From assembly GCA_964017185.1 (NCBI GenBank), contig OZ024875.1, positions 29,955,456 through 30,019,455 of the forward strand: a stretch of 64,000 nucleotides of DNA. Direction: 5' to 3'. Under the pieces are notes generated by a model. That model searched no databases, was not told where the DNA came from, and was given only the letters and a program-made list of their open reading frames with translations. Of the stretch, positions 29,332 to 63,352 are shown one piece after another. Origin of the DNA: Rugalucina vietnamica (Eukaryota > Mollusca > Bivalvia > Lucinida > Lucinidae). Every line of letters begins with the position of its first letter. The stretch's first letter is position 1. Position numbers and translations under genes: made by a program.

Positions 29332-30966
29332 TTATTCAAGTTTGAATAAGAGCAACTTTTCAGACTCCCAGCAACCTATTATGAGCGTATCCTCACTTTC
29401 TTTGTACAAAACAGTGTTAGGTTCTTTTAAACCTTCCTTCGATGTCAGGAGAGCGCTTATCTTCTTTCCGTCTGGGCTGATGATATGGACATTGCGGGTG
29501 TTGCAGCCACACACCAAGACGTTATCTCCAGAGTCACATATCAACCCTCTTGGGCCTGTTGTTTCTCGATGTTTGTATGTGTAGATAACCGTTCCACTGG
29601 ATGTGAGACAAGTAATGGTGTTCATGCTCCAGTCAGAGACGAAGACCCTCTCACCAGATGTGCTGACACTGATGTAGAAAGGACTGCCGATGAATAACTT
29701 TGAGCCATATTTGTCGGTTTGGAAACATCGTTTTATGTTATACTGCAAATCAAGGACCCTAACTTCTCCCTCCCCCGGACTGTCATGGCATGTTGTGTAG
29801 ATTTCATCACCATAAATAGCAACACCATAGCATCTCCTGTCCAACTGAATGGTCCTGCCAGACTTCATCTTTGGGAACACCTGTAGTTCTTGCAATTGCT
29901 GTGTGTCTGGTAAGGAGACAAGGACTTTACTCGCGTTAATGACGGCGACATCCCATGGACATTGTAACTTCAGTTGATCGGTAATGGTCCAGGAGTCGTC
30001 AAGAAGTTTGATTTTGTTATTGCTCTTGTCGCACAGCATAATATGACCAGTCGGCATCACTGCACAGCCTGTTATCCAATGACTCTTTTCATCATCATCT
30101 GTCCTAATATTCACCTCACTGCTTGATTCAATTTTTTTGTCTTTTAGTATTTTTGTTGACATGGTGGTAGAAGGCTTGTCTTGCAGTTCATTCTCCTGTC
30201 CACCAACTTTACGTTGTGTTTTTAAGGACCCCAAAGTGTTAATACCAGCCAATAAATCAGCAAGACATCCATTTTTTTCAAATGCTAATTTTGGTTTATT
30301 AGTATCGATATCTTTTTCTAGTTTTTCCAGTTTAAGTTTATAGTCCTGAATAGTTTTTGACAACTGAATTTCTGTCGTAAGCATTGTTTCCCTCTTGCCA
30401 TCGCTTTTGGCATCTTCTATGCGTCTACAGTCAACCTTTAGTACTTTAAGAGCTGCTTCAATATTCCAGTCATTTTGCTCCACATGACGATTTTCATCCT
30501 GTCTCCATTTCTCTACCTCCCTAAGACTGTTTCTCTCTAGATTATCAAATATAGTGTCAAGCTCCTTACGGAGCTGTTTGATCTCTTTCTTACATGTTTC
30601 TGCTAGTTTATATATCCTCTCTTTCCTTCCAGGGCTTTTTTGTTTCAAGCGTTCATAATTGACCACAATTGCTTTTATTTCAGCCAAAATTGAATTAAGC
30701 ATTGATGTATTGTTGTTTGAACTTTTTTCATTGGTGCTGCCTGTCGCACGACTGACAGGGGTTGAGATCTTGTTAACGGGTGCAATACTATGGTTCCTTG
30801 TTCCTTTAATATTGCCATGGTAATCTTTACAGTCACCACAAAGATAATCTGGGCAGTCCTTACAGTAGTGTTCAGCAGCCTTCATTTTCACCCTCCTTGA
30901 ACATGGACCACATTCAGGACCACGGTATTCGTCACATGTCATAGAATCACCATAACTCTCCATCAT
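29332..30966 (-). CDS. B-box / coiled-coil / NHL-like protein (TRIM-type, no RING)
   Basis: 544 residues in one open exon. A B-box zinc finger is seen at residues 19-59 (Cys19, Cys22, Cys35, Cys38, Cys43, Cys46, His50, His59). A charged coiled-coil region follows at about 85-250, then a C-terminal beta-propeller-like region at about 290-544 with repeated strand motifs such as GRTIQLDRRCYGVAIYGDE. There is no N-terminal RING, so ubiquitin ligase activity of its own is unlikely; related RING-less TRIM proteins act as scaffolds or partners. An acceptor (TTTTCCAG) lies about 15 bp upstream of the ATG, so a 5' UTR exon is expected further upstream. An AATAAA overlaps the TAA stop. Its biological role cannot be told from sequence. 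Confidence 0.88.
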   Translation of the reverse strand: MMESYGDSMTCDEYRGPECGPCSRRVKMKAAEHYCKDCPDYLCGDCKDYHGNIKGTRNHSIAPVNKISTPVSRATGSTNEKSSNNNTSMLNSILAEIKAIVVNYERLKQKSPGRKERIYKLAETCKKEIKQLRKELDTIFDNLERNSLREVEKWRQDENRHVEQNDWNIEAALKVLKVDCRRIEDAKSDGKRETMLTTEIQLSKTIQDYKLKLEKLEKDIDTNKPKLAFEKNGCLADLLAGINTLGSLKTQRKVGGQENELQDKPSTTMSTKILKDKKIESSSEVNIRTDDDEKSHWITGCAVMPTGHIMLCDKSNNKIKLLDDSWTITDQLKLQCPWDVAVINASKVLVSLPDTQQLQELQVFPKMKSGRTIQLDRRCYGVAIYGDEIYTTCHDSPGEGEVRVLDLQYNIKRCFQTDKYGSKLFIGSPFYISVSTSGERVFVSDWSMNTITCLTSSGTVIYTYKHRETTGPRGLICDSGDNVLVCGCNTRNVHIISPDGKKISALLTSKEGLKEPNTVLYKESEDTLIIGCWESEKLLLFKLE

Positions 30967-31051
30967 CGCCAGTGTTTTAGCCTGGAAAATACTGAAACAA
31001 TTTATTAACTCTTTATTGCATGTATGCCCTGGCAGAAGTAAAAGTTAAGCT

Positions 31052-37229: not shown

Positions 37230-40200
37230 TTAAATATAAGCAACATCTTCTGGCTTTACTGTAAACGTATATGGCCGTTGTCCGACACGCCAATCTGTAG
37301 ACTGCCACCTGTCTGGTGGTTTTCGTTTCCTCTGAGGTCTTGTTCGGGGCCTTCTCTGTATTTCTTGCCTCTGTGTCAATTGATCCGACTGAGGCCTTTC
37401 TCTTTCTTGGCCACTCCTCCTGGCTGGTATTATATATCTGGGTACTGCCTCTCTTTTCTCACTCACATCAGAACTAGAGTCTGTTGAATCGTCTGAACTT
37501 TCTTCTATTTCAGATTCTGGCTTCTCTGCTACTTCATCCTCTGGCTCGGATTCCTCTATAACTGGTAGACCGCAGAATGGTAATAGCATATTCCGGTGCA
37601 ATAACTTCTGCTTAGTGCTATTACCTTCTCTCTTTACTGAGAAAACCGGAATATCAGGTATCGGTTGGTCAACCACAGTGTAGGTGTACGGTTCCCATAT
37701 ATCTGACAACTTGTGTTTTCCTTTAATTCCTACTTTCTTAACCAGAACACGGTCTCCTATATCGAGAGAGGCATTTCTCACTTTCTGGTCGTAGTAATGC
37801 TTATACTTGACTCCTTTCTTCTTAGCTTCTTCTGTCGCCTTCTTGTAAGCTGTCCTGAGTCTGTCTCTAAGCTTGTCTGCATAGTCTTTCTGATTGCTGT
37901 TTTCTTTCAAACCTAGGAAGGCGTCTACTGCAAGACGTGGATGTCGTCCAAACATGAGGAAATAGGGGGAAAATCCTGTGCTTTCATGTATTGCCGCATT
38001 ATAAGCATGTGTAAGTGTTGGCACATATGCAGCCCAGTTTCCCTTCTTGTCCTCTGTAAGTGTTCCCATCATGTTTAGTAACGTCTTGTTAAACCTTTCT
38101 ACCATCCCGTTTCCCATGGGATGGTAGGGAGTCGTTCTTGTCTTTGTGATTCCGGCCAGTTGACAGAGCTTCTTAATAACCTTTGATTCAAAATTTGCCC
38201 CTTTATCACTATGGAGTTTCGCTGGAAATCCGTAATGCACAAAGTAGTTCTCGAAAAGGATCCTAGCTGTTGTATGGGCTGTCTGGTTCCTTGTCGGTAT
38301 GGCTTGTGCATAATGGCTGAAATGGTCTGTAATGACAAGGATGTTCTCAAATCCTCCCTTTGATCTTTCGAGGGAAAGGTAGTCAATACAGACCAACTCC
38401 ATAGGTGATGTCGATGTTATATTCACCAGTTCTGTAGCTTTCACGGGAGCAGTCTTCCTTCTTATACACCTGCCACATTGCTGAACTTTTTTCTTGATAT
38501 ATTTATTCATTCCAGGCCAAAAGAAACGCTGGCGAATAAGAGATATCGTCCTATCCCGGCCTTGATGCCCTAAATCATCATGATAGGCAGCGAAGATAGT
38601 CTCTCTCACAGAGGATGGAATAACGAGCTGATCAACTGATTCTCCATTGATTTCTGCTGTTCGATATAGCACATCCTCTTTCATCTTGAATTTCTCCCAT
38701 TCAAACAAATATCTTTTATCAACATCATTTCTTTCGACTTGTCTGACTGTCGGTCTCTGTCCTTGGTGTATCTGTTCCACAATAAAGTTGATGCTTCTGT
38801 CAGATGCCTGAGCCTCACGCCAATCATGCATTGATAGTGATGTCCCTTCTAACTGTTTCTCAGGTATTTCATCTTCTATACTACCGTTATCGTCTGGATG
38901 CATCAAGGTCTCTGAATATGGAGCTGTGTCCACTCTCATGCAATGACTAATGGCCTTTAGGACCTCTGGGAAGACGGTCGTTGTCTCGTTTTCCATCATT
39001 CTTGATAATCCATCCGCGTCGGCATTGTTCTTTCCACTACGATAACTAATGGAACAGTTGTAGTTCGACAACTCAGCTAGCCAACGTTGTCCAGTCGCAT
39101 CCAGTTTAGCAGTAGAGAAGACGTAGGTCAGCGGGTTATTATCCGTCACTACCTCAAAAGTGGCACCGTACAGATAGTCGTGAAACTTCTCCGTGACGGC
39201 CCACTTGAGAGCGAGAAATTCGAGTTTATGTGCCGGATAATTCCTCTCTGATGGCTTGAGGCTCCTACTTGCATACGCAACAACTCTTTCAGCACCATCA
39301 TGAATCTGGTAGAGAACAGCACCTATTCCTGTAGTCGATGCGTCAGTATGGACCTTGAAAGGTTTTCTGTAGTCCGCATATGCCAGGATAGGGGGACTGA
39401 TAAGCTTTTCCCTCAGTGTTTCAAAAGCATGTTGTTGCTGCTCTAACCAGGTAAATGGAGCCTTCTTAAGCTTTGTCTTTGGTTTGTTTCCTTTCTTGTT
39501 GTTGGTGCAGTGGCCTATGAGGAGATCATTTAGTGGTCTTGCAATCTTAGCGTAGTTCTTGATGAATTTCCGGTAGTATCCGGTGAACCCAAGAAAAGCA
39601 CGGACGTCTTTTACTGTTTTAGGTACAGGCCATGACTTGATGGCTTCCGTCTTTTCCGGATCAGTTTCAATTCCTTCCTCGGATACTACATGGCCTAAGT
39701 AGGTAACCTTTGACTTTAAGAACTCACACTTCGATGCTTTCAATTTCAGGTTGTGCTGGGAGAGACGTGAGAAGACTGCACCGAGTCGTTGTAGATGTTC
39801 TTCAACAGTTGACGAGAAGATAATGATGTCGTCTAAGTAAATCAAGCAGTCTCTCAAATTGAGGTCGCCCATGCAACGCTCCATCAAACGCTGAAAAGTT
39901 GCTGGAGCGTTACAGAGTCCAAAAGGCATTCTATTGAACTCGTAAAAACCCATTGTTCCAACCTGAAATGCTGTTTTCTCTTTGTCTTCCTCCTTGATCT
40001 CCACTTGCCAATAGCCACTCCGGAGATCCAGCTTAGTAAAATATTTTGCACCAGCAAGCAAGTGGAGCGTGTCATCAACACGTGGAATGGCGTAAGCATC
40101 TGTTTTTGTCCTGCTGTTAAGTTTGCGAAAATCTACGCAGAATCTAATCGTTCCATCTTTCTTCCTAACGATCACGACGTTGGACGAGTATGGGCTTGCA

Positions 40201-41318
40201 CTTGGTCTAATTGCTTCTGCCTCCAGCATCTCTTTAAGATGTTCTCTTACTTCCTGAAATATTGCTGGAGGGATTCTGCGATGTGGTTCTTTAAATGGTG
40301 TTTCATCTTTCAGGTGTATTTCGTGTTTGACTAGGTCACAATTTCCAAGGTCTGTTATCCCTGTTGAGAAAATGTGCTTCCATTTCAGGAGAAATTCTGA
40401 GACTTTGAGCTTCTGATCTTCTGTTATGTTTGCTGCGTCTATTCCTAACTTATTCAGAAACTCTTGATCATCTGTATAGTATTCTGCTTTATTGACCTGC
40501 TGCTGTTTGATGTTAACTGTCTCTTCTGTTCGTGGTACAGGGTCTACACTCCTCAAAACTTTCACCTCATGCAGTTCGCAAAGATCTGATTTTGGTCTGA
40601 CTTTCACTACTTTTGCAGACATGTTGAAGAGACGAACTTGGACTCTTTGATAGTTTCCTTTCTTTTCTAAAGAGACAACCCGGGGACAAACGCCAATTCT
40701 GTTTGAAGCTCCCTGAGTTTGTTCCGTAACTGCTGCTTCAACATTTTCTTTCTTTCGCACTAAGCCTGATATAGAAACCGTTTGCATAGGTTGGATGCTG
40801 AATTCAGTTCTGTTTGTTGATTTCACAATACCAACATGGCTTCTGTGTAAGGCAATAAATGCCTTTTCCCATTCATCTGGAATTTGGACTTGATCTTTCT
40901 GTTTACAAAGATCCTGGAAATCATCTATAGCGTTGGTTCCTACAATAACTGGTACTTCTAAACTGTACTCAGTCGTTGGGACTATAAGAGCTCCGGTTTG
41001 TATGGTATCTTCTCCTGTAAATGGTGCTCGAACATCGCACAAGATGCATCCAGAATATGGAATTGTATTTCCACCAGCTCCTTGAATTTTCAATCCAAAC
41101 TCTTCAAGCGAATGCAAGTCAGGCTTAGGGTTCATTTCCCGGTAAAAGTCTTCCGAAATCGTTGTGATCTGTGAACCACTGTCAATTAATGCCTTAGTTT
41201 TTACTCCGTTTATCTCTATTGTTGTTTCATTGCTTCTGCCGACTACTTTACTGAAGATATCAATTTTCTTGGGGCTTTTGTTGGCGTTTGTCCCCAGTCT
41301 GCCCCTCGACGGAGACGC
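37230..41318 (-). CDS. Ty3/gypsy Pol: protease, RT, RNase H, integrase
   Basis: The frame is open from the codon after the TAG at 41319-41321 to 37230; the first Met is at 41135 (1301 residues counted from it). An aspartic protease motif (LIDSGSQ) lies about 16 residues before that Met. Counting from Met1: RT about 290-470 with YLDD at 433-436, RNase H from about 590 (VHTDAS), integrase zinc finger HHCC at about 851-890, and DDE residues Asp918, Asp977 and Glu1013. All catalytic residues are present and no internal stop exists, which points to a young copy. It lies in the same frame as the preceding gag. Acts in cytoplasmic particles and then in nuclear integration. Confidence 0.95.
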   Translation of the reverse strand, partial: ASPSRGRLGTNANKSPKKIDIFSKVVGRSNETTIEINGVKTKALIDSGSQITTISEDFYREMNPKPDLHSLEEFGLKIQGAGGNTIPYSGCILCDVRAPFTGEDTIQTGALIVPTTEYSLEVPVIVGTNAIDDFQDLCKQKDQVQIPDEWEKAFIALHRSHVGIVKSTNRTEFSIQPMQTVSISGLVRKKENVEAAVTEQTQGASNRIGVCPRVVSLEKKGNYQRVQVRLFNMSAKVVKVRPKSDLCELHEVKVLRSVDPVPRTEETVNIKQQQVNKAEYYTDDQEFLNKLGIDAANITEDQKLKVSEFLLKWKHIFSTGITDLGNCDLVKHEIHLKDETPFKEPHRRIPPAIFQEVREHLKEMLEAEAIRPSASPYSSNVVIVRKKDGTIRFCVDFRKLNSRTKTDAYAIPRVDDTLHLLAGAKYFTKLDLRSGYWQVEIKEEDKEKTAFQVGTMGFYEFNRMPFGLCNAPATFQRLMERCMGDLNLRDCLIYLDDIIIFSSTVEEHLQRLGAVFSRLSQHNLKLKASKCEFLKSKVTYLGHVVSEEGIETDPEKTEAIKSWPVPKTVKDVRAFLGFTGYYRKFIKNYAKIARPLNDLLIGHCTNNKKGNKPKTKLKKAPFTWLEQQQHAFETLREKLISPPILAYADYRKPFKVHTDASTTGIGAVLYQIHDGAERVVAYASRSLKPSERNYPAHKLEFLALKWAVTEKFHDYLYGATFEVVTDNNPLTYVFSTAKLDATGQRWLAELSNYNCSISYRSGKNNADADGLSRMMENETTTVFPEVLKAISHCMRVDTAPYSETLMHPDDNGSIEDEIPEKQLEGTSLSMHDWREAQASDRSINFIVEQIHQGQRPTVRQVERNDVDKRYLFEWEKFKMKEDVLYRTAEINGESVDQLVIPSSVRETIFAAYHDDLGHQGRDRTISLIRQRFFWPGMNKYIKKKVQQCGRCIRRKTAPVKATELVNITSTSPMELVCIDYLSLERSKGGFENILVITDHFSHYAQAIPTRNQTAHTTARILFENYFVHYGFPAKLHSDKGANFESKVIKKLCQLAGITKTRTTPYHPMGNGMVERFNKTLLNMMGTLTEDKKGNWAAYVPTLTHAYNAAIHESTGFSPYFLMFGRHPRLAVDAFLGLKENSNQKDYADKLRDRLRTAYKKATEEAKKKGVKYKHYYDQKVRNASLDIGDRVLVKKVGIKGKHKLSDIWEPYTYTVVDQPIPDIPVFSVKREGNSTKQKLLHRNMLLPFCGLPVIEESEPEDEVAEKPESEIEESSDDSTDSSSDVSEKREAVPRYIIPARRSGQERERPQSDQLTQRQEIQRRPRTRPQRKRKPPDRWQSTDWRVGQRPYTFTVKPEDVAYI

Positions 41319-43208
41319 CTAGTAGTTTAACTCCTTCTTTTTCGTTTCATCTTCTGTGTTCCCATCTTTATTCCGTTTATGTATATCAAAAGGTCTTGGT
41401 TTTGGTTTCTCTTCGATTTTCTTATTCAACTCTTTCATGTTTTCTTCCATAACTGTTAACTTTTCATAAACTGTTTCTAAATTGACAGATTCTGGTGGTT
41501 CACTGTTTCCCGAAAATCCAATTTGAGTTTTAACTATTTGCTGTTGCACTCCAGGATTAAATTTCAGATCATTTTCCTCCTTTTTAACTTGACTCAGCAG
41601 TTCCTGGTAGTCACTTATATTAATAAAGTGAATCTGAGATCTATTCTTCAATTTTTCTGATCTCAGTCCCTTCCAAAACCTGTCTTTCAGCATGGTATTT
41701 GTATTTTCTTTCTTCAAGTAACCTATGTCTACAGCCTTATCTACTATACCCTGAAGTCTGAGTCCCCATGTTACCACGTCTTCGTTCTGCTTCTGGCTTG
41801 CTGTATAAAACTCCTGCATCATACTCTCTCCGCTTGCCACATTCCCGAATACCCGTTCCAACCTTTTCATAATCTCATGAATACTAGCTGTTGTTCCACA
41901 AGACATCAACACCTGCTTTGCTTGGCCTGTCAGGGATTTACGAATTGCTTGTGCAATAGCTTGATGAGTATGGACATTGTCATCTAAACAGCTTTGCACT
42001 TCAAACTTCCATACTTCAAAAGTACATTCTTTTCCCTGTCTTTGTTCGTTTCCTGAGAATGTTGAAAACTTCGGGAAAAACGGAGCCTTATCTTGAGCAT
42101 ATGCATCTGTTCCTCTGTCCACTCTTTTCAATCCACTTTGTTCAGAACATTTTCCTGTAGAAATAAGAATATTCGTTCCTGAAGCTATATTCTCTTTCCT
42201 CTCACATCCTATCTCAGCAGAGGTCAATATCTCCTTCTGTCTAGCTTCTGATATCTTTGACATATGATCAGTTTCCTGTTCGTCAGTACCTAACGATTTA
42301 GCAGCACTCAATTCCTTTTCTCTGACACTTTGATTCTCATCTATTACAGCTTCAGTTTCTACTATGCTATTTTCTCGTTTCTTTATGTTTAGAACTCTAT
42401 CTTCTAATTCTCTTTCCTTTGAAGCTAATGCTTCGTCATAAGCATCTGCTTTCTGTTTACTTTCCAACGCCTGTCTATGTTTCAGCTCCTTTTCTTTTCT
42501 GTCTAACTGTAGCTCTTTTTGTCTTATTGCCTCTTCTCTGGCTTGGATTGACAAAGCACGCCTTTTCTGCTGTTGTAGCCTATCTAACTGTTCTTGCATC
42601 ATTTTCCTATCAATTTCATTTCTCATTTCCTCTTCATAATCACTATATTCATCTATACTGTAAGTGCGATGTTCATTCATCCTTGAATCCATTGGGATAA
42701 ACTCTTCTGACTTTAAATCAGGTATCTGTTTTCTCGACACTGGTGCCCTCCGCTTAACATTCCCAGTATTTACATTTCTTTCTTCACACCTTTCAGTTGT
42801 CTCTATCCGATCCCTATCATAATATTTGGGTCTCGAATAATCGGTTTCTCTTTCTCTATACTTTGAATTTCTTGTTGAGGTTATTGGCACCTCACTTTGG
42901 CCAATAGTCCCTCTTCTTCTATCATCTCTCCTATATCTTTCTGTTCTTGCTTCCAATGGCGGATACGTTTCATTCCCAACAACATTCTCGTGTCCATATC
43001 GAGGAATATCATACTGGCTTACATGATGTCTATTCTCAACAGTCCTCGGCTCATAGCGTATGTCTGTTTCTACCACCGAACCTGGTTTCCTTCGACTTGT
43101 TTGTCCTTCATTTAAAGCCCCTCTTCTGTTTTTGGGTCGCTGATTCATTTCTATCACCATCTTGTCTATAACAATATCTAGGTGTATTTCCTCTTTCCCC
43201 AGTATCAC
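41319..43208 (-). CDS. Ty3/gypsy Gag, capsid-containing frame
   Basis: 629 codons as an open frame. The N-terminal half is Arg/Glu-rich and strongly coiled-coil (about residues 200-300). The C-terminal half matches the retrotransposon Gag/PNMA-like capsid pattern (FEVWKFEVQSCL, AIRKSLTGQAKQVL, FYTASQKQNEDVVTWGLRLQ). No CCHC zinc knuckle is visible. It ends in a single TAG, after which pol continues in the same frame, suggesting stop-codon readthrough. The true start is probably in the upstream frame (43108-44130), so a frameshift separates the two parts. Confidence 0.85.
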   Translation of the reverse strand: MILGKEEIHLDIVIDKMVIEMNQRPKNRRGALNEGQTSRRKPGSVVETDIRYEPRTVENRHHVSQYDIPRYGHENVVGNETYPPLEARTERYRRDDRRRGTIGQSEVPITSTRNSKYRERETDYSRPKYYDRDRIETTERCEERNVNTGNVKRRAPVSRKQIPDLKSEEFIPMDSRMNEHRTYSIDEYSDYEEEMRNEIDRKMMQEQLDRLQQQKRRALSIQAREEAIRQKELQLDRKEKELKHRQALESKQKADAYDEALASKERELEDRVLNIKKRENSIVETEAVIDENQSVREKELSAAKSLGTDEQETDHMSKISEARQKEILTSAEIGCERKENIASGTNILISTGKCSEQSGLKRVDRGTDAYAQDKAPFFPKFSTFSGNEQRQGKECTFEVWKFEVQSCLDDNVHTHQAIAQAIRKSLTGQAKQVLMSCGTTASIHEIMKRLERVFGNVASGESMMQEFYTASQKQNEDVVTWGLRLQGIVDKAVDIGYLKKENTNTMLKDRFWKGLRSEKLKNRSQIHFINISDYQELLSQVKKEENDLKFNPGVQQQIVKTQIGFSGNSEPPESVNLETVYEKLTVMEENMKELNKKIEEKPKPRPFDIHKRNKDGNTEDETKKKELNY

Positions 43209-44130
43209 GTGGCGTCGATTCTCTTTCGTTGTATTTTCTCTGATTATGTTTTATTTGTGTTTCAGACTCATAACTTGTATTCGGTTGATACATTGTGTCT
43301 TTCTGTATAGATGCTTTAACATTTTGCTCGCCGATCTGTAATTCCTGCTTTGCTCTTTCGCTATTTCGTCTTAACTCTGTCAATTTATCTTCCAGTATCC
43401 TTATCTCTCTGTCAATCTTTTCAAACATTTCGCAACTCTGCTTTCTTCTTCTACTCGTATCTGCTACTCCAGTGCCTCTATCATCTATTCTATTTGTCTT
43501 CACACCTGTAGAATCTCTAACTTTCTTATCTTGCTCAACCCTTCGAGGTTCTTGAACACAATAATCTGCATCAGAACGTAGACTATTTCTATCTTCTTGT
43601 CTCTCTTCCACAACTGTCTGTGAGTCAGGCGGTGGACCAACATAACTGTACAGGTAAGTATCCGTGTCTGATCTACGGTACTGTTGATCACCCATTTCTA
43701 TTTCTCGTTCAACTTTTGCTCTTTCTTTTAACACCCGCTGCACTTCACCATCACTAACAACTCTTCTATGTTCCTGATACATATTCAAATCTTCAATAGT
43801 ATCATAACTTTCTGACCTAGTAAATACACTATCCACTGTCCTACTATCACTTTCATATCCATCCATAATATCTGTGTATTCATTTGCATTCCTTGAATCC
43901 CTAAAATTCTGCTCAGTGTATTGTTCATCAACACTTTCTCCAGAAGAATAGTCTGGCCCTGTAAAACGTTGTTGAGCCGGTTGCTCCACAGTGTGTACAG
44001 TAAATGTTACAGAGCGTCTCTCACGAGCCTGTTGTTCACTAGGCTGTGGTGACACTGTTATAGAGCGTCTAACGTCTGGAGCAGTTTGTATTTGTGACGG
44101 TAGCTGTACTCGATCTCTTTTTGCATGTAT
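43108..44130 (-). pseudogene. Ty3/gypsy Gag, N-terminal part in a different frame, 5' truncated
   Basis: A charged, Glu/Arg/Ser-rich frame without recognised domains runs to a stop at 43108. It overlaps the next gag frame by about 100 bp and is shifted relative to it. Either a disabling frameshift or a programmed one; the sequence alone does not decide. Sequence above about 44130 belongs to the LINE, not to gag. Confidence 0.75.
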
Positions 44131-46310: not shown

Positions 46311-47086
46311 ATATACCACTGCAGAAGCTGAGGGTGAGGTTAGGATCCTGTAAAACCGGTTTAAGCCCGCCAGTAACTTTGTGTTACTGATCGTTCCAAG
46401 GCGATACTTCTGTGGTGGTTCTTTTTGTTTTATGTCTTGGTGTTTAATTTTTTTTTGTGCTGTTGGCGCCTTATGTATGTTTTCATATTTTTAATTAAGT
46501 TAAGGTAACTGAGTGGCCACCTATTGGGAAAATAGCTGCTCATTCGGCTTACGATATGTTTCATGGTATAAGTGCCTGATTGTTAGTTTGGTTTTTTCCC
46601 ACCTCGGTTTTTGGAGTGGGAATCTCTTTCTGATTGCGCCTTTTCCTGATCTTTGCCTACTTGTACCTTTTCATAATCGGAGACAGACGGACAATTAGAG
46701 AGAGAGAGAGAGAGCGAGAGAGCGAGGTTTATTTCGTTATTTGATCATTCAATTAATACTAAAATGAAATTGTTTAAAAATACTAAGTTCCTCTAATAAA
46801 ACCTTTCGTACGTTGCACCTATGTAAATCGCATGCTGCATCAACGAACTAGTGTCCATAACGCGCGTCGTCAGATTAACACCAAACTGGGTTGTTTAGAG
46901 ACGCATATTTTACAAAACCGGGTGCCGTTTTTTTTGGCATTTCAATTTGCTATATAGTGGACGTGGAAAAAAGCACATGGTCTGTAGAATAAGTTTATCT
47001 AGTAACTTTAATAAAAATATACTACATGTATTTACGAAAACGGCATACATTTTCATGAGTTTTGTCAACTTTTTGCAGCCATAACC
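46311..47086. other. Upstream region of the CRIB-CARD gene
   Basis: Contains a GA microsatellite at 46697-46727. A splice acceptor (TTTTTTGCAG) ends at 47080, seven bases before the first ATG of the next gene, so a 5' UTR exon probably lies further upstream but cannot be placed. Confidence 0.5.
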
Positions 47087-50000
47087 ATGAATCACTTTAA
47101 TAGAAAGAAACCACCAAAAACGAAGAAAGAAGACATATCAGGGCCACAAAACTTTGAGCATAGAAAACACATTGGGCTTGAAGATGTGAAACAAACTGAC
47201 AGTTTTGCCAGTGGAATGTCAACAGAATTTGGCAGCGATGTAAGTGTTGAATTTTCACCGGTCCTTTTTCATGCGCAGTTACCATTTTTTATGATCATAT
47301 TTCTCGTGAAAACATGGTTGAATGATCACTTTTAAGCTTTTTGCGCTGTGGATTTCGTATGACTGTCGTGCGCTGCCGCAAGGCTGTCGCGCAAAACCTG
47401 TAGATTAGTGCCGCAAACTGAAATGAAACGGATTTCCGCGTTTGTCCTGTGTTAAGTGAAAACATAAATGTAAGCCTGCATTCTTGGAATAAATGCCCTG
47501 CATTTCATTTTCAAACAATACATGTTCACTGAGAACAAGACCTGGATGTCTGCACCACCATCGTTATGTTGAATGTTTTCGTCGCTGTACATGCTGCAAG
47601 CAAGGTCCCAGGTCCCTTATCAGCATTATCCTTTCAAATATTTTGCTGCGTTCGTGGGTGAAATGTATTCGTGTGATTTTACATTTTTGCATCAATGAAT
47701 GAATTTTAGGACGGTAGGAAGGTAGAGAAACTTTCTGTATCCCTGAGTAAATAAAATTTGTTCCATATTCTGTGCGCCTTATTTTGTATAGCAAAAGATT
47801 TTCGATTTCTATTTTAATTTTGTTATCAACGGGGCCTTCAGTAAACATTGAACTCTATCTAGGAAAAAAAAAAAACACTCTTGATGCACTTGATCACCTG
47901 CAAAAAGTTATTGCGCTTACTGGTTTCACTTCCCCCTTCCTCAATTTTAAAAGGTGGAACCAGTTGCTAACACAAGCTTGAACAATGAACACATAAACGA
48001 TATACCCTTCTTTGTATCTGAAGAATAGTTTCAGTATACGGTCTAATTATATAATTACCTTTTCCACAAAAATATTGTCTCCTTTTATCTTGTCGTATGT
48101 TTCACCCTTTTCAGTTTTGAACTTTTACTCATTTATGACGAATGGACTTGCCCATCATTATCATTTTATGTACCAATCATTTGTAACCACTGCTCCCCCA
48201 TCTTCGGGGAAGGGCGGGGATTATGACTTTTCAGCTTTCAGTGCCCTGCTATGAGCCCCACCCCCAGGGGGCAAACCTTCGCAATAGAAAAGCTCCCTGG
48301 GGTAAGGATCTAATGTCAAAACCCCGTCATTTCCCCTGCACTGCGGGGTAACTTGAACAGTAATTGTCCCGCTCTTTAGCCCGGCTATCCCCCACCCTTC
48401 CCCGTAGGTGGGGGTGGGGACAGTGGTTACAAATGATTGGGGCATCAGGAATGATTGTTTATTTTTATTCCATTTTTCGATGAATTTTCTTTTAAACAAA
48501 CAGAATAGCCCCAGATGGGACGCTGCGTTCAGTGGCGCCTTAAATGAGTTAACCATCTGTACATTACGAGAAATGTTCTATTCAAATTGATTACAGGGAT
48601 GTCAGAAGTCCCCAATGTCTAGAAACGTTGAAGAACTTCTCGAAGTTGTCATAAAAGTACAGCAAGAAACGCTAGAAAGAATAACGATTCTAGAAGCCAA
48701 AACTGACCAAATAGTAACTGAAATAGGCAGAATAAACACAGCAAAACCAGTTGTTAGGGCTGGGTCGAGAGAACATGCTAGTTATGAAAATACCACTGAA
48801 GATCAATACCTCGCGTTTGTAAATAATGCAAATGCGATGGCTCGATATTCCAAAACCTTCAAAAGCATGCCAGATTTATCCAGTAGCGACGAACATAGGC
48901 AAGACAAACAAAGTTCTTTACCGAGGTATAAGAAAACTGCAGATGGTAGGAGGCCGCTCGAGCACCGGACCAGTAGTATAAAGAAGAAGGTTGCTGTGCA
49001 GAAGTCATATTCTAAGCCTGGCTTAGGTAAGAGTTATATTGGTTGGGGAGGGTGTGGGTGCGGTTAAAACGAATAGAATATAAATGTTACCGTAGATTTC
49101 CATCAAGAAAACATATCCGTGTAATGTATACCCCCTTGAACCCCACTTTTATATAGCAAAACTGGGGTATGCAGGGGTATACCTATTTTTCTTATTTTTG
49201 CTCCAAAACATAGATTGTGGGTACTCGTTAGAACCGCCTCGCCGAGGCGGTTCTAACGTGTACCCACAATCTATGTTTTGAGCATAAATAAGAAAAATAG
49301 CAAAAATTTTCCACTGAAAATTTTCATTTTTACAACTTTAAAAATTTCTGTATATTGCATGGGCATGTTTTCGTTATGTCTGTATAAAGTCTATGGGCGC
49401 CTGTGCACGGCATACCTTCTCTTTTCAATGTTTGCATCTTTGGTGTCATGAATCATCATTCTTGCATAGATATCTATGCGCATGGCTGTTTGAAGCCGTT
49501 TTCGATTGGTCGAAAGCCGTGTTCAAACTGCAAAACCCATGTTCAAATCATGAAATTCACGTGCCGTTTGAACATGGGTTTTGGCCGACGTCATTGGTCA
49601 AAGTGACGTGACGTCATATATTTCATAGAAACAAAATGGCCGACGTTGAAGAAGCTCCGCGGTTTTTGGTGCGTTTTTACGTTGTTAATGTTATTTTCAA
49701 GCGATTTTAAGTGGATTAGAGTGAAAATGCAAGAATAGCGATCAACCATGGTTTGTTTCAGTGTTCAAACATTCGCTGGATCACTCGGAAGGTGTTTGAA
49801 CACGCGGCCTGCGGCCTTGTGTTCAAACACCTTCCTCGTGATCCATCGAATGTTTGAACACTGAAAACCATGGTTGATCCCTATATTCATATGCTTTTTT
49901 ATTTTTCATATTCAGCTATTAGGAGAGAATGTATGTCACAAGCACTTCAAGCAAACATAGTGTTAATAGTTGAAGGTCTGGAGTTCACGCAAAGTACTTT

Positions 50001-51586
50001 ACCAGAACAACTTATACAGGCCGGACATATGACAGAGGAAGAATGCAATTCTGTCAGAACTGATAAAAGTAGGAAAGATCAAATACGTTACATTGTCAGC
50101 CGAACTAAAAGTCGCAGTTTGCAAGATATGGAACAATTTCTTGTAATGATAGGACAACAAATTCCGCAAGTCGTTAATAAAATATGGGACCAGTACGAAT
50201 CTAATCTTAAAAGAAATGACACAAGTGTAAAGTGCATGCTATGCTTGTGCTTCGAAAACATTGACGTTAAAGAAATTGTTGATGAACTCTGGAGTACTGG
50301 AGCAGTGCCCGATAGCTTCTACAGAGATGCCATAAATTGCTCAAAACCTCGGGGTTGCCAAGAAAATTTGTGGCAAGAGCTCATATACATTTGTAATAAC
50401 AAGCAAACAGCTGAGAAACAAAAAGCATTTAACATCTTGTTCGAGTATATTAAAAAAGTTGGTAAATCAGGTGGTTTTGATTTCATAGTAACAGGTCTGA
50501 AAAGTATGTTTGAGGCTGAGCGAAAACTCACATGTCACTGCCAGATGTCTGTTAATGTCAAATCTCAATTGTCGGAGAGAGAATCGAATGCCTCGAGTAA
50601 ATCGTATTCATCCTTATCTCCGCGAAGTTCAGCTTCAGATGAAAGAAGGTCGCTGAGATTAAGCGATGACTTGTATAAAGAAACAGACATTGACGAAGAT
50701 AATCAAAGGACTCATAGGAAAATAGTTAGACAATCTTCCATGGAAGATGATATGGCAGAGTCAACCATTCCTAAAGAGTTTGCAATCCCTAGAGCCAAGG
50801 TAAAACTTTTGATTTTCAGACCTTACTTCATGTTTTATTAAAAGAAGTATCAGATGTATCATACTTGTATTTTTAACAATTAATGCTACACGCCGGATTT
50901 TTTTCTTGAGATTAAATTGGTATATTTTCTCAAACGTAAATTGGTATATTTTTCTCAAATGTAAAGGTATAATAATTATTTTATAGTCATGAAATATCTA
51001 CCTGCACCAAACTTAGTTTAGTCTCCTTGATGAAATTATTATCTTTGTATAAGAAATAGATTACAAATGAATTGACTCGCTGGTCTACGGATAGGGAGAA
51101 GTTTTCTGTCCATTGATGTTTTGACAGGTCATGAATGAAGTTATAATAAAAGGCGTTTAGGGTATGCCCTTTGTTCGATTTGTAAACATAGTTTCACTTT
51201 TTCTGAATATTGTTTGCCATTGCTTTGGCTCATTCCATTAATAAGATAAGGAAAGGGAAAGATTATTGCACGATTTTTTTTTTAATTGTAATGAATAAAA
51301 TTTTCATTCAGTCTCTAATTTACAGATTTACCAGTCTAAAAGTTTAGAAATGCTAGATACCATAAGAGAAGACACAGACACGACATTCAAAAAGGTTCCT
51401 CATACATTAGAATTCCACCATCCTGTGCGTGTGCAAGTTGATTATGAAGGTGCAGTACCCGTAGAAAAACGAAGGACCAATAGCGCACGCACCGCAAATG
51501 AAAATCGCACAAGGCGATATGGAAGCGAGATAAGAATAGATGATACTGGTTTTTCTATTCCGTACCACCATGGCACATGTGTATAG
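47087..51586 (+). CDS. CRIB motif plus CARD domain protein (four coding exons)
   Basis: Exons 47087-47239, 48597-49026, 49916-50799 and 51326-51586 join in phase (0, 1, 0) and give 575 residues. Residues 17-30 (ISGPQNFEHRKHIG) match the Cdc42/Rac-binding CRIB consensus ISxPxxFxHxxHxG at every fixed position. A short amphipathic coiled coil follows at about 58-95, then a basic, Ser-rich linker. A CARD is predicted at about 200-285 (LPEQLIQAGHMTEEE, then FLVMIGQQIPQVV). A second helical segment at about 302-400 (ENIDVKEIVDELWSTGAVP) may be another death-fold. The C-terminus is Ser-rich and charged. Inference: an adaptor linking Rho-family GTPase state to CARD-mediated assembly. Introns carry a palindromic MITE, a second MITE and a dispersed repeat. 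No named orthologue recognised. Confidence 0.82.
48130..48530. repeat. Dispersed repeat split by a palindromic MITE (CRIB-CARD intron 1)
   Basis: The left part (to 48170, GACGAATGGACTTGCCCATC) and right part (from 48446, ending AGAATAGCCCCAGATG) belong to the family at 27205 and 55718. They are separated by the MITE at 48171-48444. Confidence 0.72.
48171..48444. mobile_element. Palindromic MITE, copy 2 (ACCAATCATTTGTAACC)
   Basis: Related to 34660-34957 in reverse orientation. Ends ACCAATCATTTGTAACCACT and AGTGGTTACAAATGATTGG. Shares AAAACCCCGTCATTTCCCCT with the complement of the first copy. Confidence 0.87.
49105..49375. mobile_element. ACATAGATTGTGGGTA palindromic MITE, copy 4 (CRIB-CARD intron 2)
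   Basis: Best-preserved copy: the palindrome AACCGCCTCGCCGAGGCGGT sits inside inverted CATAGATTGTGGGTA arms, with outer imperfect arms CGTGTAATGTATACCCCC. Confidence 0.92.
49461..49888. repeat. Dispersed 430-bp repeat, copy 2 (CRIB-CARD intron 2)
   Basis: Same family as 21892-22337, here with intact inverted blocks GTTCAAACACCTTCC/GGAAGGTGTTTGAACAC and a CAGTGTTCAAACATTCG pair. It ends about 25 bp before the acceptor of exon 3. Confidence 0.88.
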
Positions 51587-62462: not shown

Positions 62463-63352
62463 TCCGCGGAGGTCGATATCGCACCTGCATCGGGCAAAGT
62501 CAATAGACCATGAAATATAGTTCAAGGGCACCGGGTCAAGGTGCGTGCTTGAAGGGCATGTCAAGGACAATTACTATGCAAGGTTTCAGACTCGCAGCTA
62601 TCTCTGATGTTGAGAAAACCAAACTTCGACGTAAAAAGTTTCAAAGTCAGTGGACCGTGAAATATAGGTCAAGAGCACCGGGTCAAGGTGTGTGCTTGAA
62701 GGGTATGTCAAGGACATTTACTATGCAAGGTTTCAGACTTGCAGCTATCTCTCATGTCGAGAAAACCAAACTTCGCCGTAAAAAGTTTCAAAGTCAGTGG
62801 ACCGTGAAATATAGGTCAAGTGCACCAGGTCAAGGTGCATGCTTGAAGGGTATGTCAAGGACATTTACTATGCAAGGTTTCAGACTTGCAGCTATCTCTG
62901 ATGTCGAGAAAACCAAACTTCGACGTAAAAATTTTCAAAGTCAGTGGACCGTGAAATATAGGTCAAGGGCACCAAGTTAAGGTGCGTGCTTGAAGGGTAT
63001 GTCAAGGACAATTACTATGCAAGGTTTCAGACTCGCAGCTATCTCTGATGTCGAGAAAACCAAACTTCGACGTAAATGTTGACAAAACTTCGACGTAAAA
63101 TTTTTTAAAGTCAGTGGACCGTGAAATATAGGTCAAGGGCACCAGGTTAAGGTGCGTGCTCGAAGGGTATGTCAGGGACAATTACTATGCAAGGTTTCAG
63201 ACTCGCAGCTATCTCTGATGTTGAGAAAACCAAACTTCGACGTAAATGTTGACGGACGAACGAACGAACGAACGAACGCACGGACGAACGAACGAACGGA
63301 CAGAAATTTGGACTCCTATATCGCACCCTGCTATAAGCAGGTGCGATAAAAA
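62463..63352. repeat. 147-bp tandem repeat inside short TIRs
   Basis: About five units of 147 bp (TGGACCGTGAAATATAGGTC at 62651 and 62798). 147 is a multiple of three, so a 156-codon frame runs through (62510-62980). The array ends in GAAC simple sequence (63253-63299). The outer sequences TATCGCACCTGC (62477) and GCAGGTGCGATA (63337) are inverted repeats, so the whole block looks like one mobile unit. Similar in organisation to the arrays at 27.3 and 53 kb. Confidence 0.88.

What the first reader, a model, noticed from the sequence alone, without database searches (positions are those of the whole stretch)
47087..51586. Predicted protein joining a CRIB motif to one or two CARD-type domains
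Four exons with matching phases join an exact CRIB consensus (ISGPQNFEHRKHIG) to a coiled coil and a CARD, with a second helical death-fold-like segment after it. CRIB motifs read GTP-bound Cdc42/Rac; CARDs nucleate inflammatory and apoptotic assemblies. I do not know a named protein with this combination. Molluscs are known to have expanded CARD and TRIM families, so a lineage-specific innate sensor of Rho-GTPase activity is a reasonable hypothesis.
Basis: partly seen in the sequence, partly recalled or inferred. Interest (0 to 1): 0.82.

Follow-up and report, generated by a model that had tools for sequence, protein, structure and literature searches.

The report
CRIB protein with tandem CARD-like domains
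This animal gene appears to fuse a short motif that recognises active Cdc42/Rac switches to one, probably two, cell-death/inflammation assembly domains, and two sister genes in the same genome keep the layout, so it may be a protein that reports Rho-switch activity directly to innate immune or cell-death signalling.

Summary
Four GT-AG exons (phases 0-1-0) give a 575-residue protein: N-terminal CRIB, helical segment, CARD, second six-helix domain, Ser-rich tail. The strict CRIB pattern occurred 0 times in 160.8 Mb of simulated DNA. Domain 1 is a CARD: the isolated window copy lies 0.5 bit under Pfam's cut-off, both paralogs above it. Domain 2 is probably a CARD too, by homology to a Pfam-recognised domain in C6 relatives and by fold comparison of a modest-confidence model. 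It is bracketed by CxxC...CxC; three of the four cysteines are invariant in the 10 family members aligned, perhaps a metal site. No listed paper named this combination. GTPase binding, expression, CARD assembly and immune role are untested. Best reading: a Cdc42/Rac-GTP-recruited tandem-CARD adaptor; new variant of a known kind.

The parts
47087..47239 (+). Exon 1: start codon, basic stretch (NRKKPPKTKK) and CRIB motif ISGPQNFEHRKHIG (47135-47176); ends phase 0 at GTAAGT
   Evidence: translation, splice sites, only CRIB match in the window; PBD 23.6 bits, cut-off 21.3; PAK4 CRIB E 0.0033; C7 30.81 Mb paralog exon 1, E 6e-6
48597..49026 (+). Exon 2: about 41-residue amphipathic helix (SRNVEELLEVV...GRINT), then basic/Ser-rich linker; ends phase 1
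   Evidence: exon in the same place in both paralogs, only 17-18% identical to the window's; coiled-coil character moderate here, weak in the paralogs
49916..50799 (+). Exon 3: CARD1, CARD2-like domain with CxxC...CxC, and a Ser-rich tail; ends phase 0
49939..50190 (+). CARD1 (stretch matched by Pfam CARD)
   Evidence: Pfam CARD 23.4 bits, E 6.1e-5, cut-off 23.9; paralogs 28.9 and 27.4 bits; family-profile hits to NLRC4, caspase-9 and CARD8 CARDs, E 0.003-0.02
50227..50541 (+). Second domain, probably a CARD, bracketed by C-x2-C and C-x-C (possible zinc site)
   Evidence: six helices, mean pLDDT 63.7; CARD entries lead the VIA list; profile match to the C6 second CARD that Pfam recognises (weaker without the cysteine ends); cysteine conservation
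51326..51586 (+). Exon 4: C-terminal tail with a (T)(L/V)EFHxP motif shared by the three genes, stop TAG
47070..47078 (+). Splice-acceptor-like TTTTTGCAG just upstream of the ATG (possible 5'UTR exon upstream, not located)
   Evidence: sequence only

Best explanation
A four-exon gene of a three-member family encodes a Cdc42/Rac effector whose output is a tandem CARD. Shown by sequence: the exons, the CRIB motif, CARD1, a second conserved helical domain with a CxxC...CxC bracket, and two paralogs that fit the same exon order and phases. Inferred: the basic patch plus bare CRIB binds GTP-loaded Cdc42 or Rac at membranes (the Pfam match covers only the first 23-25 of 59 PBD positions, so a PAK/WASP-style autoinhibitory extension is not seen); recruitment crowds the protein, helped by the exon-2 helix; the tandem CARD, stiffened by a metal clasp around the second domain, then nucleates or joins a CARD assembly that engages a downstream CARD protein such as a caspase or BCL10-type adaptor. 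Excess Rho-GTPase activation, as caused by bacterial effectors or phagocytosis, would thereby raise an inflammatory or cell-death signal. My odds: gene architecture about 0.93; GTPase binding about 0.7; the whole chain to an immune or death output about 0.45. The confidence below is for the middle claim, a Cdc42/Rac-recruited tandem-CARD adaptor.
For: Splice structure, single open frame. Exon 1 alone over the PBD cut-off, best PDB hit PAK4 CRIB E 0.0033; 0 strict CRIB matches in 160.8 Mb simulated. C7 paralog exon 1 found by tblastn at E 6e-6 in the same script as, and independent of, the pattern scan; phases 0-1-0 fit in 3 of 3 genes. CARD1 over cut-off in both paralogs. Domain 2: C6 relative 34.4 bits to Pfam CARD, and both C6 genes over the cut-off there in the genome search (33.9 and 26.7 bits); hhalign E 2.2e-6 between that domain and a five-member second-domain profile; of the first 11 VIA rows ten are Apaf-1, Apaf-1/caspase-9, ARC, RIG-I or RIP2-CARD entries and one is a de novo design (that the matched ranges of the longer entries are CARDs is partly recalled). 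CARD stretches constrained between paralogs (pN/pS 0.27-0.43, pS saturated). In mammals SopE triggers NOD1/RIP2 by activating Rac1/Cdc42, and Rac2-PAK1/2 drives NLRP3 (PMC8084149, passages seen).
Confidence: 0.6

Rival explanations
1. A cytoskeletal or polarity scaffold rather than an immune sensor: GTP-Cdc42/Rac recruits it and the tandem CARDs act as an ordinary oligomerising interface in actin, adhesion or phagocytosis signalling.
For: Of the 10 other PBD loci in this genome, 7 show motifs that I recall as PAK, WASP, MRCK, BORG or SPEC types, mostly cytoskeletal; two paralogs carry PxPxPR in exon 2, recalled as a CIN85/CD2AP SH3-binding motif.
Against: CARDs in characterised animal proteins serve mainly apoptotic and inflammatory assemblies (general knowledge); the window gene lacks PxPxPR.
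Confidence: 0.25
2. A CARD-type decoy or inhibitor: the CRIB localises a CARD protein without enzyme that caps or sequesters CARD assemblies, as ICEBERG or ARC do.
Against: Tandem domains with long tails are unlike the single-CARD decoys (recalled); no direct test.
Confidence: 0.15
3. The CRIB exon is a separate gene or chance motif wrongly joined to the CARD gene.
For: No transcript evidence; an acceptor-like site upstream of the ATG could link exon 1 to other exons; exon 1 is short (51 codons open by chance, p 0.03).
Against: Both closest paralogs have a CRIB-like exon in the same place with a compatible phase; 0 strict CRIBs in 160.8 Mb simulated.
Confidence: 0.05

Closest known systems
NOD1 (CARD-NACHT-LRR) responding to Rac1/Cdc42 activation by SopE
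   Same: Links Rac/Cdc42 activation to a CARD protein (link from PMC8084149, passages seen; domain make-up recalled)
   Different: NOD1 has no CRIB (recalled); here the GTPase-reading motif and CARDs are in one chain, with no NACHT or LRR in the Pfam scan
PAK4-type p21-activated kinases
   Same: N-terminal Met + basic stretch + CRIB; a PAK4-like exon of this genome reads MFKKKKKPAISGPSNFEHRVHTG, 11 of 14 CRIB residues the same by my count; best PDB hit PAK4
   Different: No kinase domain and no PBD extension in the Pfam scan
SPEC (CDC42SE) and BORG (CDC42EP) small Cdc42 effectors
   Same: CRIB without a catalytic domain (recalled for these families)
   Different: No CARD in those families (recalled)
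RIG-I-like receptors and NOD2
   Different: No helicase, NACHT or LRR; cysteine bracket around the second domain
Wider tandem-CARD/CxxC-CxC family in the same genome (C3, C6, C7, C15 loci)
   Same: CARD1-like region plus cysteine-bracketed second domain
   Different: No CRIB found in the upstream stretches fetched; some carry a long helical or RHIM-like C-terminal part

Membership tests
CRIB/PBD Cdc42-Rac effectors | I-S-x-P-x(2-4)-F-x-H-x-x-H-V-G | tested here: met
   ISGPQNFEHRKHIG fits, with Ile for the last Val; consensus as quoted in PMC8847673 (passages). The C5 and C7 paralogs have Leu/Val for Phe
CRIB/PBD Cdc42-Rac effectors | Pfam PBD score over the curated cut-off | tested here: met
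   exon 1 alone 23.6 bits (cut-off 21.3); genome search 22.0 bits, over; but full-length protein 20.4, under
CRIB/PBD Cdc42-Rac effectors | GTP-dependent binding to Cdc42 or Rac | not testable with these tools
   needs pull-down or ITC
CARD (domain 1) | Pfam CARD score over the curated cut-off | tested here: inconclusive
   window copy 23.4 bits alone, 19.6 in the full protein, 22.9 in the genome search; cut-off 23.9; same exon in C5 28.9 and C7 paralog 27.4, both over
CARD (domain 1) | six-helix death fold | tested here: inconclusive
CARD (domain 2) | Pfam CARD score over the curated cut-off | tested here: inconclusive
   no CARD hit in the window, C5, C7 30.81, C7 64.67 or C3 copies; the corresponding domain of two C6 relatives is over the cut-off (34.4 bits alone; 33.9 and 26.7 in the genome)
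CARD (domain 2) | six-helix death fold | tested here: inconclusive
CARD (both) | homotypic CARD-CARD binding | not testable with these tools
   needs binding or filament assays
PAK kinases | C-terminal kinase domain | tested here: not met
   no kinase in the Pfam scan of the predicted protein
RIG-I-like receptors | DExD/H helicase after tandem CARDs | tested here: not met
   no helicase in the Pfam scan
NLRs | NACHT and LRR | tested here: not met
   neither in the Pfam scan

The most novel reading that the evidence does not exclude
A direct Rho-GTPase guard: one protein whose CRIB reads GTP-Cdc42/Rac and whose tandem CARD, with a metal-clasped second domain, nucleates the response, so that effector-triggered immunity to Rho activation needs no separate NLR, kinase or sensor. 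The three paralogs may tune GTPase choice or threshold through the CRIB Phe/Leu/Val change.
Probability: 0.33. Interest if true: 0.82.

Novelty: new variant of a known kind. Interest (0 to 1): 0.64.

Why it matters
In mammals Rho-GTPase activation is reported to NOD1 or NLRP3 signalling, in the NLRP3 case through the PAK1/2 kinases (PMC8084149, passages seen). A single protein that carries both the GTPase-reading motif and the CARD output would make this surveillance directly testable with two recombinant domains, and would suggest that CARD signalling has been wired to Rho switches by domain fusion. The cysteine-bracketed tandem CARD is a second testable claim.

Tried and rejected
Rejected: exon 1 as a chance motif or separate gene. 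Rejected: RLR, NLR or PAK membership. Set aside: PPR-protein hits of the second-domain profile, with E down to 1.7e-14 for the whole sequence; those rows have 0 stretches passing on their own and align about 30-40 residues, so I read them as summed weak matches to designed helical repeats. Set aside: weak Colicin_M, OmpH and similar Pfam hits far under cut-off.

Led nowhere: the viral contig scan found no relative. Foldseek gave no match at E <= 0.001 for either model; bromodomain, globin and other helical folds also appear in the lists. Direct profile comparison of CARD1 with the second domain, and of CARD1 with the C6 second CARD, is negative. The whole-genome search with exon 1 did not complete, so the CRIB-like exons of the paralogs rest on the loci fetched; the PBD family search (11 matches listed) shows the window exon and neither degenerate paralog exon. 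The loose CRIB pattern was widened after I had seen the C7 paralog sequence; its simulated rate is 11 in 160.8 Mb. Rows left out of the 10-row alignment, from 14 matches: two partial ones at C7 64.62 Mb (L007, L013), the second C6 gene and the weak C6:68.86 Mb match. Literature: only listings were looked at for searches (20 of 72 papers listed; 6; 3; none found; 10 of 581; 8); no listed title or abstract start names a CRIB-CARD protein; the library holds open-licence PMC texts only. Tree support for one origin of the CRIB trio is 74/68.
Full report
What is there. Exons 47087-47239, 48597-49026, 49916-50799 and 51326-51586 on the + strand splice at GT-AG sites with phases 0, 1 and 0 into one open frame of 575 residues. 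Residues 17-30 are a CRIB motif, the only match in six frames of the window. The strict pattern did not occur in 2512 simulated windows (160.8 Mb, first-order Markov). Exon 1 alone passes Pfam's PBD cut-off (23.6 against 21.3 bits); embedded in the full protein it does not (20.4). The match covers 23-25 of the 59 PBD positions, so this is a bare CRIB preceded by a basic stretch.

Is the CRIB exon really part of the CARD gene? Exon 3 finds 14 matches there at E <= 10, itself included. The two best others are C5:4,480,921 (50% identity) and C7:30,815,362 (44%), the latter about 0.81 Mb away on the same strand. In their upstream DNA, tblastn with exon 1 found MNQIRRKIKPKDVSAPIKVEHVSHVGLEDV (E 6e-6) at the C7 paralog, and a pattern scan found MSKFKKTKKSKDETFVSQPLNLRHVTHLGPLDV at the C5 paralog. 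These exons end 2.6 and 2.5 kb before the CARD exon (2.7 kb in the window gene), and in C5 an in-frame stop is the second codon upstream of the ATG. All three genes fit four exons with phases 0-1-0; I chose the paralog borders by eye with the window model as guide. Identity between genes is 45-66% in CARD1 and domain 2, 29-43% in exon 1 and 17-35% in exon 2. Synonymous change is at or near saturation; nonsynonymous change is held down most in the two domains (pN/pS 0.27-0.43), less in exon 1 (0.44-0.61), least in exon 2 (0.64-0.83). So this is an old family with constrained CARD stretches. In the paralogs the CRIB Phe is Val or Leu; PBD gives 18.6 bits and no hit. The loose pattern that covers them, widened after I saw one of them, hits only these two places in 19 fetched, partly overlapping loci, and 11 times in 160.8 Mb simulated.

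Cysteine bracket. In the 10 family members aligned, the only invariant columns are C106, C206 and C208; C109 is in the 90% class. They flank the second domain as C-x2-C and C-x-C. I infer a metal, probably zinc, clasp; nothing here tests this. One search listed nothing on it.

How it probably works. Inferred: GTP-loaded Cdc42 or Rac recruits the protein through the CRIB and basic patch; crowding, helped by the exon-2 helix, lets the tandem CARDs nucleate or join a CARD assembly. Because no PAK/WASP-type autoinhibitory extension is seen, recruitment rather than release of autoinhibition is the likelier switch. Mammalian precedent for the logic exists: SopE triggers NOD1 and RIP2 through Rac1/Cdc42, and Rac2-PAK1/2 drives NLRP3 (PMC8084149, passages seen). 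The alternatives are a cytoskeletal scaffold and a CARD decoy.

Comparison and novelty. Of the 10 other PBD loci listed for this genome, 7 show motifs I recall as PAK, WASP, MRCK, BORG or SPEC types; the rest showed none with my pattern. The window's CRIB is near a PAK4-like exon (ISGPSNFEHRVHTG, 11 of 14 the same). The CARD search lists 80 matches at E <= 1, 72 of them over the cut-off by my count, so CARD genes are many and the CRIB fusion is the unusual part. Literature searches (listings only) name no CRIB-CARD protein; one review of CRIB proteins (PMC8847673, 12 of 18 passages seen) sorts effectors into Ser/Thr kinases, tyrosine kinases, actin-associated proteins, adaptors and miscellaneous. 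I call it a new variant of a known kind.

Limits. No transcript, expression or binding evidence; no other eukaryote genome could be searched; the host's identity as a mollusc was not checked; a single origin of the CRIB trio is only moderately supported (74/68).

Noticed in passing
L008, L009 (C7 45.29 Mb) and L010 (C15 8.13 Mb): Tandem-CARD relatives carry a RHIM-like C-terminal stretch (for example KIFNFYNRGNVNFGTSVVQM, NINNHGKGPVNVGTKLIKVG); the RHIM comparison is recalled, not tested.
   Followed up: no
L012 (C6 30.810 Mb) and L044 2161-4293: A tandem gene pair with two Pfam-recognised CARDs, the second cysteine-bracketed, followed by a long C-terminal part; one weak TPR_2 hit in the L044 copy, under cut-off.
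   Followed up: partly
genome-wide, C14:1841374-1842066: An 832-aa open frame with two CARD matches; the CARD search lists 80 matches in the genome.
   Followed up: no
window 37230-43250, - strand: Ty3-like retroelement: PNMA-type gag frame and a frame with protease, reverse transcriptase, RNase H and integrase.
   Followed up: no
window 29332-31044, - strand: 570-aa open frame with a weak B-box-like match under cut-off, perhaps TRIM-like.
   Followed up: no
window 48168-48445, 49204-49280, 49756-49866: Inverted repeats inside introns 1 and 2, perhaps small non-autonomous transposons.
   Followed up: no
L014 8490-8507 and L016 8360-8377: Exon 2 of both paralogs has a PxPxPR stretch (PCPAPR, PVPAPR), recalled as a CIN85/CD2AP SH3-binding motif; the window gene lacks it.
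   Followed up: no
window 62507-62980, + strand: Open frame made of repeated units of about 50 residues.
   Followed up: no
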